DNA from: Actinomycetota bacterium
Lineage (GTDB): Bacteria; Actinomycetota; Thermoleophilia; Solirubrobacterales; Solirubrobacteraceae
Direction of reading: 5' to 3'
Assembly (NCBI GenBank): GCA_018268595.1
Contig: JAFDWH010000009.1
Location: 1 to 64,000 of the forward strand
Length of the DNA stretch: 64,000 nucleotides
Made by a program: the position numbers and the translations under genes. Numbering within the stretch: the first letter of the stretch is position 1; each line of letters starts with the position of its first letter. Below, piece by piece: positions 31,577 through 35,319 of the stretch. The notes beneath the pieces were generated by a model, which did no database searches, had not been told where the DNA came from, and saw nothing but the letters and a program-made list of their open reading frames with translations.

Positions 31577-31807
31577 TCAGTGCCAGCGGCGGCGCAGCCG
31601 GCGAATCCGCACTGCCTGCCTGACACGCCAGCTCCGGACATCCTTGGTGAGCATCCAGGTGGAGAGCATGCCGGCGAAGAAGAGCCCGCCGAGTGCCGTT
31701 CTCACGGCGGACGGCCAGCCGAGCAAGTAGGCAGCCATGACGACCAGCGGTATCACCAAGCCGGTGATGTCCACCCAGATCCGCAGGAGACGACTGTCTT
31801 GCTTCAT
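31577..31807 (-). CDS. Small membrane protein (76 aa), unknown
   Basis: Two hydrophobic helices (about residues 12-28 and 37-53) and a strongly basic C-terminus (RQAVRIRRLRRRWH), so the tail should face the cytosol. No known family. It lies 22 nt after the next small membrane protein gene in the same direction and could be the last gene of the pseudopilin operon. Confidence 0.55.
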   Translation of the reverse strand: MKQDSRLLRIWVDITGLVIPLVVMAAYLLGWPSAVRTALGGLFFAGMLSTWMLTKDVRSWRVRQAVRIRRLRRRWH

Positions 31808-31829
31808 GAATCGATCGTAGGGTCGACGT

Positions 31830-32060
31830 CTACAGCCGATCTATGGCGAAGACGACCAGCAAGCCCAGCACTCCTGCGCCGAAGCCGAGGATCAGCCCAG
31901 CCCGCGTCGCGTCGCCTGCTCTCTCCGAAGGCAGCTTCCGCAGATCGGCCGCGAGCGCTCCGATGACACTGCCGAACGTCGCGGAGAACGTGATTGTGGA
32001 GACGCGACCCGGGTCGGGCAGCTCGGAAGTCAGCAGCACGACGAGGACGAGCAGCGTCAT
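31830..32060 (-). CDS. Small membrane protein (76 aa), unknown
   Basis: Two membrane helices: one at about residues 20-38 (after a Leu/Val-rich first ten residues that may form part of a third) and one near the C-terminus (AGLILGFGAGVLGLLVVFAI). The ATG at 32060 overlaps the stop of the TadG/VanY/transglycosylase gene by 4 nt, so it is translationally coupled to it and probably belongs to the same envelope machinery. No function can be assigned. Confidence 0.6.
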   Translation of the reverse strand: MTLLVLVVLLTSELPDPGRVSTITFSATFGSVIGALAADLRKLPSERAGDATRAGLILGFGAGVLGLLVVFAIDRL

Positions 32061-33430
32061 CTGACGAGGCGGACGGCGAGGCTGGTCGCGAGCCCGGCGC
32101 TGTCGCCGGCGCCGCTCAGCAGGCCGAGGATGCGGGTGACGTAGCCCTGCGTCTCGGGGTACGGCGGCACGCAGCCGCAGGCGGACACGGCGCCGGGGCC
32201 CGCGTTGTAGGCGGCGAGCGCGAGCGGGACGCTGCCGAAGCGGCGCAGCAGGTCGCGCATCAGCCGCCCCTGCGCGTCGATCGCCTGTCTGGCGTCGAAC
32301 GGGTCGTCGAGGCCGAGCGCATGCGCCGTCGCCGGCATGAACTGCGCGATCCCCTGCGCCCCCGCGGGCGAGACCGCCGCGGCGTCGAAGCCGGACTCGG
32401 CGTACAGCTGCGCCGCCAGCAGCGCCGCCGAGACGTTCCAGCGCTGCGCCGCGGCGGCGAGCGGAGCGGCGTACCGCGCCGGCACGAACGACGGCAGGCC
32501 GGCGCGGCCATCGTCGCCGTAGCCGACGGCGGTGGTGCCGGCGTTCAGCGTGAAGCCGTAGTGCCACGGCTCGTACGACATGCGCTGGACGAAGTGGAAC
32601 CCGCCCGCGTGCGCCGCCAGCCAGCCGTACGCGCTCGCCGGCCCGAGGTCCAGCTCGGTGCCGAGCCGGTGCAGCGACCTGCCGGGCGGAGCGACCCATC
32701 TCGGATCGGGGTGCGCGGCGAACAGGCGCGCTTGCTCGGCGTTGCTGCGGAAGCCACTTACGACGATCAGCGACACGCCGCCGCGCGCCGCCGCGGCGGC
32801 CATGCGATCGAACGCGAGCGCCACGTCCGGGCGCATGGGCTTGCCCTGCCGGGACGCGAGCGGACCGCGGTACTCGCCCGCGCCGGCCGCGAACGCGCTG
32901 GTCGCCCCGGGCGCGAGCTGCGCCTCGGCGACCGCGACGACGGGCGCGCTGCGGCGGCGGCCCGCGACCTCCACGACCGCGGGGTCACGGACCGTGACGC
33001 GGATGCGCGTGGGCGCGAACGCGTCGCCGTCCGGGAACGCGACCTCGACGCGCTGCGCGCCGTTCAGCCGGGCGGTCGCGAGCGCCCGTGCGCGCGCTGC
33101 CGCCAGATACGCGGAGCGGTCGAGGTGTTGCGGGTTCGGGACGCCCTCGATCGCCGCCGGCGCGAACAGCCGCTCGTAGCTCGCGCGCATCGCGCGTGCG
33201 CCGCCGAGCGCGGCGAGGTCCGCCGCCTGCTGGTCGCGCCCCTTCGCCCCGATCCCGCGCGCCACGCCGCCGAGCACGAGCGCCGCCACGAGCGCGGCGC
33301 ACATCGCGGCGACGAGCAGGAGCAGGGCCTGCCCGTCCTCGCGCGGGCCGCTCGCAAGGCGGTCGGGGGCAGCAAGCCGGCCGGGCTCCGCGAGCCGGCC
33401 GCGGTCCGCGAGCCGTCTGCGGTCAACCAT
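32057..33430 (-). CDS. TadG-like pseudopilin fused to VanY peptidase and lytic transglycosylase
   Basis: A three-part 457-residue protein. Residues 1-32 are a degenerate repeat (RLADRG/RLAEPG/RLAAPD). Residues ~33-58 are a membrane helix starting GQALLLLVAA, followed by the GRDQQAADLAALGGARA segment of TadE/TadG-like secreted-pilus proteins. Residues ~190-300 form an M15 (VanY-type) peptidase with SLHRLGTELDLG (SxHxxGxxxD) and EPWHYGF. Residues ~325-445 form an SLT lysozyme-like domain with AAQLYAESGFDAAAVSPAGAQGIAQFMP (catalytic Glu) and AYNAGPGAV. It could cut both peptide and glycan strands of peptidoglycan from a membrane-fixed position. It overlaps the neighbouring genes on both sides. 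The combination is unusual. Confidence 0.85.
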   Translation of the reverse strand: MVDRRRLADRGRLAEPGRLAAPDRLASGPREDGQALLLLVAAMCAALVAALVLGGVARGIGAKGRDQQAADLAALGGARAMRASYERLFAPAAIEGVPNPQHLDRSAYLAAARARALATARLNGAQRVEVAFPDGDAFAPTRIRVTVRDPAVVEVAGRRRSAPVVAVAEAQLAPGATSAFAAGAGEYRGPLASRQGKPMRPDVALAFDRMAAAAARGGVSLIVVSGFRSNAEQARLFAAHPDPRWVAPPGRSLHRLGTELDLGPASAYGWLAAHAGGFHFVQRMSYEPWHYGFTLNAGTTAVGYGDDGRAGLPSFVPARYAAPLAAAAQRWNVSAALLAAQLYAESGFDAAAVSPAGAQGIAQFMPATAHALGLDDPFDARQAIDAQGRLMRDLLRRFGSVPLALAAYNAGPGAVSACGCVPPYPETQGYVTRILGLLSGAGDSAGLATSLAVRLVR

Positions 33431-34064
33431 CGCCGCCGCTCAGCGCCAGCTCCGCGACGGCGACTGCCGCCTCCTGCGGAATCGCCATGCCTCCGAGCGC
33501 GAGCGCGCCGGCCAGCCGGCGCGGCGGCGTCAGCTCGGCGACCGGCCGTCCGAGCCGCGCGAGGCTCGCGCGCGCTCGCTCGGCCAGTCCGTCCGCCGCG
33601 TCTGGCTCGCGCACGACGACGATCGCGTCGTGCCACGCGAGCACGCGGTCGAGCGCAGCCGTGCGCGCGAGCGGCAGCGCCACCGTCGTCGGCAGGCCGG
33701 CGAGCGTCCCCGCGCGCCCCAGCTCGGCGCAGAGCGCCGCCGCCCGCGCCGCGGCGTCGTCCTCGACGGTGCCGCGACGATCGGCGAGCCGCACCGGGGC
33801 GTCGTCGTCCACGCCCGCGCGACGATCGGCGAGCCACGCGAGCCGGCCGCTCGCGTCGACCGCACGCCCATCGCGCCGCAGCGCCGCGCTCGCTCGGCGG
33901 GCCGTCGGCAGCCCGCCGAGCGCGCTGCCGCCGCCGTGCCCGAGCGCCGCGGCGAGCGCGCCCCGGGCGCCGGCGGCGCGGGCCAGCGCGAGTGCGATGC
34001 CGGCGGCGGCAACGCGGGCACGCGGCTCCGTGCAGAGGATCGCCACGTGCGGCGCGCCGCTCAC
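33423..34064 (-). CDS. Unknown protein of the pseudopilin operon (213 aa)
   Basis: No recognised family. The N-terminus (HVAILCTEPRARVAAAGIALALARAAGARG) resembles the fold start of MinD/CpaE-like ATPases, whose genes often accompany Tad pilin clusters, but the P-loop Lys motif is absent. The middle has a near repeat, WLADRRAGVDDDAP and RLADRRGTVEDDAA. It is Ala/Arg-rich, lacks a signal peptide, starts at a GTG overlapping the upstream stop and overlaps the fusion gene by 8 nt. It may be an inactivated CpaE-like localisation factor; this is inference. Confidence 0.6.
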   Translation of the reverse strand: MSGAPHVAILCTEPRARVAAAGIALALARAAGARGALAAALGHGGGSALGGLPTARRASAALRRDGRAVDASGRLAWLADRRAGVDDDAPVRLADRRGTVEDDAAARAAALCAELGRAGTLAGLPTTVALPLARTAALDRVLAWHDAIVVVREPDAADGLAERARASLARLGRPVAELTPPRRLAGALALGGMAIPQEAAVAVAELALSGGDG

Positions 34065-34462
34065 CGCTCCGGCCCCGCGTCCGCGCTCGCGTCGGCCGCG
34101 AGGCGCGGGCCCACGCCGGGCAGCAGCGACGGCGGCGTCACCCGCACGCGGACCCTGCTCCCGCTCACCTCGACCCGCAGGCGCGAGTGCGCCCAGCCCG
34201 GCAGCGCCGCCCGCGCCGCCGCCTCGCCGTCGCGGCCGAGCGCGACCGCGACCGCGCCGCTCTGCGCCGCGTGCCCGGCAAGCTCGGCGGCCACTCCCGC
34301 CGCCAGCGCCTGCAGCACGCCCAGCGCGACCGCGACGAGCAGCGGCAGCAGGGCGACCAGCTCGACCGCCGCTTGGCCGGAGGACGCAGCCCGCATGTCG
34401 ACCGCCTGCGCGTCGGCCGCGGCGGAGCGACGCCGGTGCGGGCGGTGAGCGGCGCCGCTCAT
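34061..34462 (-). CDS. TadE-like pseudopilin (133 aa)
   Basis: A short prepilin-like membrane protein. After a basic N-terminal segment comes the leader SSGQAAVELVALLPLLVAVALGV (residues ~27-50), matching the Gly|x4-Glu prepilin-peptidase pattern and a hydrophobic helix. The remaining ~80 residues form a small exported domain. It overlaps the upstream TadE-like gene and the downstream 213-aa gene by 4 nt each. An internal ATG (codon 23, MRAASSGQ) is an alternative start. Confidence 0.78.
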   Translation of the reverse strand: MSGAAHRPHRRRSAAADAQAVDMRAASSGQAAVELVALLPLLVAVALGVLQALAAGVAAELAGHAAQSGAVAVALGRDGEAAARAALPGWAHSRLRVEVSGSRVRVRVTPPSLLPGVGPRLAADASADAGPER

Positions 34463-34809
34463 CGCTGCGCCTCGAAGCGGGCGCGGGCCGTGACGGGCGC
34501 GAGCGTCCCGCGCCCGAGCGCGGCCGGCACGCGCAGCACCAGCACGACCGCGCCGTCCGACGCCCGCTGCACGCGCAGGCCTCGCTCCAGGCGCGGCGGC
34601 AGGACGGCGCGCGCCGCGGCGGCGGGGTCGCCGCCGACCGCCGCCGCGCGTGCGGCGGCGCGTGCCGCGCTGCCGCTCAGCCAGACCGTCTCGCCGGCAA
34701 GCAGCGCCTGCCACAGCAGCGCGACCACCACGCCGACCAGCGGCAGCAGCGCGACCAGCTCGACGCTCGCCTGACCATCGTCCGAGGCGCCACTTCGTGG
34801 CAGATGCAT
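34459..34809 (-). CDS. TadE-like pseudopilin (116 aa)
   Basis: The first gene of the pseudopilin operon. DDGQASVELVALLPLVGVVVALLWQ (residues ~10-34) is a class III prepilin signal with Gly followed by Glu at +5, and it doubles as the membrane helix. The exported part (~80 residues) is Ala/Arg/Val-rich. No tadA/B/C export ATPase or platform gene, and no flp pilin, lies in the window, so the assembly machinery must be encoded elsewhere. Confidence 0.8.
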   Translation of the reverse strand: MHLPRSGASDDGQASVELVALLPLVGVVVALLWQALLAGETVWLSGSAARAAARAAAVGGDPAAAARAVLPPRLERGLRVQRASDGAVVLVLRVPAALGRGTLAPVTARARFEAQR

Positions 34810-34965: not shown

Positions 34966-35319
34966 TCAGTACTCGCGCGAGGCGCGGAAGACGTAGTAGA
35001 CGCCGTAACAGGCGAGCGCGATCAGTGCGACCCACACGACCGTCCCCGGGCCGGTCGCCCACAGGCGGTCGGTCGCAGTGACGGTGAGCGCGAGCAGCCC
35101 GGCCGAGGCGTAGAGGATGCCGCGGTTGCGGTCGCCGAGCGCGTAGATGTCGCTGCGGTGCTCGCGGTAGAGCCGCACGCCGAACCACGCGATCGCGGCC
35201 AGCATCGCGATCACGAGCGCCTGCAGGATGCCCGCGCTGGCGTTGCCGCCGCCAGGCGCCAGCATCACGAGCGCGGCGAGCGCGAGCAGGATCAGGACGT
35301 TGCGAGCGGTCTCGGGCAC
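34966..35319 (-). CDS. Four-helix membrane protein (117 aa), unknown
   Basis: Hydrophobic segments at about residues 7-22, 29-48, 67-83 and 92-110, separated by a charged loop (RLYREHRSDIYALGDRNRG). No known family and no catalytic motif. It starts at the GTG at 35319, four nt after the response-regulator gene, and may be co-transcribed with it. The 156 nt between it and the TadE operon hold nothing I can identify. Confidence 0.65.
   Translation of the reverse strand: MPETARNVLILLALAALVMLAPGGGNASAGILQALVIAMLAAIAWFGVRLYREHRSDIYALGDRNRGILYASAGLLALTVTATDRLWATGPGTVVWVALIALACYGVYYVFRASREY

What the first reader, a model, noticed from the sequence alone, without database searches (positions are those of the whole stretch)
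31577..34809. Pseudopilin operon ending in a TadG/VanY/lytic-transglycosylase fusion
Six overlapping or closely packed genes encode two TadE-like pseudopilins with prepilin-peptidase sites, a P-loop-less CpaE-like protein, a fusion of a TadG-like membrane stalk with an M15 peptidase and an SLT domain, and two small membrane proteins. No pilus ATPase or platform gene is present. A pilin-type anchor carrying both peptide- and glycan-cutting activities suggests a machine that opens peptidoglycan at a defined membrane site, for pilus exit or for another purpose.
Basis: partly seen in the sequence, partly recalled or inferred. Interest (0 to 1): 0.65.

Follow-up and report, generated by a model that had tools for sequence, protein, structure and literature searches.

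The report
Wall-cutting enzymes built into pilus part
In a group of soil bacteria (Solirubrobacterales and a related lineage) a membrane part of the Tad pilus machine is fused to two enzymes predicted to cut the cell wall, which may be how this pilus gets through a thick wall, a step for which a 2025 structural study says no such enzyme has been reported.

Summary
The core of the finding is real. On the minus strand, tadE1, tadE2, a CpaE/TadZ-like gene and a TadG-VanY-SLT fusion (34809-32057) form an overlapping operon. The two small downstream membrane ORFs are not conserved and do not belong. The fusion is full-length in about 80 of 249 sampled class genomes (all four sampled families of the order plus one other). 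Its M15 zinc/catalytic residues and SLT catalytic residues are invariant in 77-79 homologues. AlphaFold gives a 58-residue helix, a confident VanY fold and a confident SLT fold.

'No ATPase or platform gene' holds for the window only. Twelve relatives carry tadC beside mraZ (tadB called in eleven, tadA in ten, an rcpC-like gene in ten); this genome has the same place, with tadC cut off by a contig end. So this is one half of a split Tad (type IVc) system. Conventional Tad loci in the same order show no such fusion; more distant relatives have TadG-VanY without SLT.

Best reading: a Tad pilus or pseudopilus whose TadG subunit carries its own wall-remodelling enzymes for exit through thick peptidoglycan. 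Enzyme activity, location and the filament itself are not shown.

The parts
34459..34809 (-). tadE1: TadE/Rv3655c-like minor pilin with prepilin site GQASVE
   Evidence: ORF; weak NCBIfam NF041390; orthologue at the same place in relatives; Glu+5 motif in 42 of 48 homologues
34061..34462 (-). tadE2: TadE/Rv3655c-like minor pilin with prepilin site GQAAVE
   Evidence: Pfam TadE 0.002, below cut-off; NF041390 2e-4, below cut-off; Glu+5 motif in 47 of 59 homologues
33423..34064 (-). CpaE/TadZ-like protein without a P-loop
   Evidence: No family match; conserved position and weak sequence conservation; predicted NTPase-type fold, pLDDT 88.8
32057..33430 (-). TadG-VanY-SLT fusion protein, 457 aa
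32903..33343 (-). TadG/Rv3654c-like anchor and stalk of the fusion (residues 30-176; helix 32-89)
   Evidence: TIGR03816 weak; PF13400 weak in the genus-mate orthologue; model
32543..32863 (-). M15/VanY peptidase domain (residues 190-296; H254, D261, E287, H290)
   Evidence: Pfam 3.9e-15; invariant residues; VanYB Z 14.1
32111..32485 (-). SLT lytic transglycosylase domain (residues 316-440; E345, Q363, Y408, N409)
   Evidence: Pfam 3.7e-19; invariant residues; Slt Z 18.2

Best explanation
This operon is the minor-pilin/anchor half of a Tad (type IVc) filament system whose motor, platform and rcpC-like genes lie at a second locus beside mraZ. TadE1 and TadE2 are minor pilins matured by a prepilin peptidase. 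The CpaE-like protein is a cytoplasmic positioning or scaffold protein that has lost ATP binding. The TadG-like protein is anchored in the membrane at the assembly base with its C-terminus outside; its SLT domain cuts glycan strands and its M15 domain trims stem peptides at that spot, so that the filament can pass the thick wall. Shown: gene order, conservation, invariant active sites, predicted folds, the two-locus split in relatives. Inferred: joint function of the two loci, enzyme activity, topology, pilus exit.
For: Both TadE proteins have G-xxxx-E sites. The fusion's N-terminus has a weak TIGR03816 match and, in a genus-mate, a weak PF13400 match. Both catalytic sites are invariant over 77-79 homologues while the stalk averages 45% identity. 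SLT and VanY folds are confirmed. In twelve of twelve relatives read, tadC lies by mraZ; tadB is called in eleven, tadA in ten, an rcpC-like gene in ten. In this genome tadC is cut at contig base 1 and followed by the same NPD-mraZ-rsmH order. The fusion and this tadC tend to occur together (45 both, 6 neither, 10 only one, of 61; Fisher p 0.002, not corrected for kinship). Wall crossing by monoderm pili is an acknowledged open problem (PMC6916266).
Against: No Flp major pilin was found near either locus, and two pilin families found none in this genus above cut-off, so a filament is not certain. tadA and rcpC were not found in this genome's own assembly. Family scores for TadG and TadE are below curated cut-offs. 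VanY-type carboxypeptidases trim stems rather than cut cross-links. The two loci are unlinked, so cooperation rests on co-occurrence and family knowledge.
Confidence: 0.7

Rival explanations
1. A contact-dependent, Tad-like weapon: the pseudopilus presents the M15 and SLT domains outward and they attack the walls of neighbouring cells, comparable in outline to the Kil apparatus of Myxococcus.
For: No Flp pilin found; Kil is a Tad-like killing system with pseudopilins (PMC8460266); two wall-cutting activities sit on one subunit.
Against: Kil lacks TadG; no candidate immunity gene is conserved in the operon; near-universal conservation at one chromosomal place looks like housekeeping; the enzymes sit on a membrane-anchored protein.
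Confidence: 0.1
2. A general wall-turnover enzyme that merely uses a TadG-like membrane anchor and has no working link to a Tad filament.
For: No flp gene found; the locus is unlinked to the motor genes; position beside uvrC.
Against: The gene is kept in an overlapping operon with two TadE proteins and a CpaE-like protein, and tends to occur with the tadC of the second locus.
Confidence: 0.12
3. The same machine serves DNA uptake: a competence pseudopilus that must open the wall, as the Flp system of Micrococcus luteus serves transformation.
For: M. luteus needs two separate tad clusters, one with only TadE/F-type pilins, for transformation (PMC4322843); a wall hydrolase aids competence-pilus exit in Streptococcus sanguinis (PMC13192262).
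Against: Competence genes were not examined here; no data on transformation in this order were found.
Confidence: 0.25

Closest known systems
Actinobacterial Tad/Flp loci (Mycobacterium Rv3660c-Rv3654c; Micrococcus luteus tad-1/tad-2; Bifidobacterium tad)
   Same: TadE-like minor pilins, TadG/Rv3654c-like anchor, CpaE/TadZ-like protein, tadA-tadB-tadC; split over two loci as in M. luteus
   Different: TadG carries VanY and SLT domains; CpaE has no P-loop; no flp found; rcpC-like gene at the motor locus
Conventional Tad loci in the same order (G043 contig C13, G030)
   Same: TadA, TadB, TadC, TadE, RcpC-like, CpaE
   Different: Flp-like pilins and P-loop CpaE present; the TadG-like protein of G043 has no hydrolase domain
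Specialised lytic transglycosylases of transport systems (as VirB1, FlgJ; from my knowledge) and LytF of Streptococcus sanguinis (PMC13192262)
   Same: a wall-cutting enzyme dedicated to an envelope-crossing machine
   Different: here two activities are covalently part of a pilus-type subunit rather than a separate secreted protein
Myxococcus Kil apparatus (PMC8460266)
   Same: Tad-like machine with pseudopilins
   Different: Kil lacks TadG and lies in a diderm with a secretin

Membership tests
Tad (type IVc pilus) system | TadA ATPase | tested here: inconclusive
   Not in this genome's assembly, which breaks inside tadC; called at the equivalent place in ten of twelve relatives
Tad (type IVc pilus) system | two paralogous platform proteins TadB and TadC | tested here: inconclusive
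   tadC fragment in this genome; tadB lost with the contig end; tadC in all twelve and tadB in eleven relatives
Tad (type IVc pilus) system | TadE-type minor pilins with G-xxxx-E site | tested here: met
   GQASVE and GQAAVE in the window; motif in 42/48 and 47/59 homologues; family scores below cut-off
Tad (type IVc pilus) system | Flp major pilin | tested here: inconclusive
   None found with PF04964 or PF14029 in this genome, but short divergent pilins are easily missed
Tad (type IVc pilus) system | CpaE/TadZ protein with P-loop | tested here: not met
   NTPase-type fold at the expected place, but no P-loop
Tad (type IVc pilus) system | prepilin peptidase | not tested
   not searched for
TadG / Rv3654c family | family profile score | tested here: inconclusive
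   TIGR03816 14.7 bits against a cut-off of 50.95; PF13400 14.6 bits against 22.3 in the genus-mate
M15/VanY metallopeptidase | zinc ligands His, Asp, His and catalytic Glu | tested here: met
   H254, D261, H290, E287 invariant in 78-79 homologues; Pfam above cut-off; fold Z 14.1
SLT lytic transglycosylase | catalytic Glu in the ES motif, GxxQ and AYNAG motifs | tested here: met
   E345, Q363, Y408-N409 invariant; Pfam above cut-off; fold Z up to 18.2
M15/VanY metallopeptidase and SLT lytic transglycosylase | enzyme activity on peptidoglycan | not testable with these tools
   needs purified protein

The most novel reading that the evidence does not exclude
A lineage-wide Tad-derived machine that has given up the Flp pilin and works as a wall-opening or wall-attacking device, with the two-enzyme TadG as its working end rather than an aid to pilus exit.
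Probability: 0.15. Interest if true: 0.8.

Novelty: new variant of a known kind. Interest (0 to 1): 0.6.

Why it matters
[quoted passage not shown] Here a Tad subunit itself carries two such enzymes with invariant active sites. That makes the question directly testable and gives TadG, whose role is unclear, a concrete one. TadG-VanY versions without SLT hint that the peptidase was joined first, but the order of events was not tested on a tree.

Tried and rejected
Small ORFs 31577-31807 and 31830-32060 as operon members: rejected, no homologues in any fetched relative. Motor-less machine: rejected, the missing genes sit at a second locus in relatives and an assembly break explains their absence here. 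Fusion as assembly artefact: rejected. Link to the genome's other type IV pilus genes (two PilB-type and two PilT-type ATPases, PilC-like platform): not favoured, since the operon's pilins are TadE-like. A regular-expression search for Flp in the motor loci gave nothing useful. PHROGs matched only the SLT domain, in phage lysins and tail proteins. The search for rcpC elsewhere in this genome found nothing. The structure searches listed no separate match for the TadG stalk, but domain matches fill those lists.

Full report
What is there. On the minus strand, four overlapping genes run from 34809 to 32057: tadE1, tadE2, a CpaE-like gene and a 457-aa fusion. Pfam finds VanY (residues 199-293) and SLT (326-416) above cut-off in the fusion. 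NCBIfam gives weak Rv3654c-like (TIGR03816) and Rv3655c-like (NF041390) matches for the fusion's N-terminus and the two TadE proteins, which places the set with the actinobacterial Tad genes. These TadE/TadG scores are all below curated cut-offs, so the assignment rests on motif, gene order and relatives together.

Conservation. Of 61 genomes searched with the fusion (this one included), 55 gave a match; about 51 are true fusions (some broken over contigs or frames) and the rest match only a domain. In a class-wide survey about 80 of 249 genomes have a full-length match (my count from the listing; a few contain one in-frame stop), in the four sampled families of the order and one further family. 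A public genome scan gives over 50 loci; where the contig reaches, the usual neighbourhood is a 117-aa membrane protein, tadE1, tadE2, a CpaE-like gene, the fusion and often uvrC. In 79 aligned proteins the M15 residues H254, D261, E287, H290 and the SLT residues E345, Q363, Y408, N409 never vary, against 41 invariant columns of 251 in that region. VanY and SLT average 72% and 70% identity to the window protein, the stalk 45%. The +5 Glu of prepilins is absent in all 76 fusions covering that site but present in most TadE1 and TadE2 homologues.

Structure. The AlphaFold model (mean pLDDT 86) has a helix from 32 to 89, a small alpha-beta stalk to about 176, a VanY domain and an SLT domain. PDB comparison gives Slt at Z 18.2 (136 residues, 2.0 A) and VanY of the VanB cassette at Z 14.1 (114 residues, 2.2 A). 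The CpaE-like protein is predicted with confidence (pLDDT 88.8) as an NTPase-type fold near ParA/MinD, NifH and SRP proteins, though without a strong match (best Foldseek E 2.3e-3); its Walker loop is gone here and degenerate in relatives.

Where the motor is. This genome's four T2SSE hits are two PilB-type and two PilT-type proteins. A tadC-like T2SSF gene begins at base 1 of contig C13 and is followed by a nitronate-monooxygenase-like gene, mraZ and rsmH. In all twelve relatives read, tadC lies near mraZ; tadB is called in eleven and tadA in ten, with an rcpC-like gene in ten and often a response regulator and histidine kinase. The same order in the closed genus-mate G003 makes an assembly gap the natural reason for the missing tadA and tadB. 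The fusion and this tadC tend to occur together, though fragmented assemblies blur the count and kinship was not corrected for.

Controls and variants. Two genomes of the order hold conventional Tad loci with Flp-like pilins and P-loop CpaE. The TadG-like protein of one of them (G043) has no hydrolase domain, and G043 also has the fusion locus. In one genus of the fifth family, and in a more distant family of the class, there are TadG-VanY proteins without SLT; the EPWHWG motif is readable in all four and the SRHxxATE[LF]D motif too, with a TadE gene on the same fetched stretch in two of the four. So the peptidase is the more widely shared partner and SLT the variable one.

Mechanism and rivals. 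The simplest reading is local wall remodelling at a Tad base for filament exit. DNA uptake is a compatible purpose; a killing device and general wall turnover are rivals. My literature searches found no report of a Tad-encoded wall hydrolase, and one 2025 paper states that none has been reported; the library is open-access only, so prior mention elsewhere is possible. LytF of Streptococcus sanguinis is a reported case of a wall hydrolase helping a competence pilus emerge, but as a separate protein.

Limits. There is no experiment. The absence of Flp is inconclusive. The phylum-wide survey failed. TadG membership is weak by sequence. That the two loci make one machine is inferred.

Noticed in passing
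L121:1-675 (G000 contig C13, base 1): The assembly of this genome breaks inside tadC, so tadA, tadB and rcpC are missing from it; gene-absence claims at this locus would be wrong.
   Followed up: yes
L133:6854-16233: A Tad motor locus with an RcpC/CpaB-like gene and a response regulator/histidine kinase pair lies beside the division cluster (mraZ, rsmH) in relatives; RcpC is best known from diderm bacteria.
   Followed up: partly
L196:3053-4045, L197:3833-4744, L198:2662-3444, L199:2228-3259: TadG-VanY proteins without the SLT domain in other lineages of the class.
   Followed up: partly
L192:5899-13495: Several long proteins with Flp-like N-termini (440-470 aa) next to short Flp-like pilins in G043.
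   Followed up: no
L053, L055, L063, L086: Public MAG records titled Bifidobacterium breve carry Solirubrobacterales-like genes; the record titles look wrong.
   Followed up: no
window 31577-32060: Two small membrane ORFs without homologues in any relative fetched, between the fusion and uvrC.
   Followed up: partly
L145:12249-14015, L147:3865-6128: Unrelated genes lie between the 117-aa membrane protein (window 34966-35319) and tadE1 in some relatives, so that gene is probably not part of the operon although it is usually near.
   Followed up: partly
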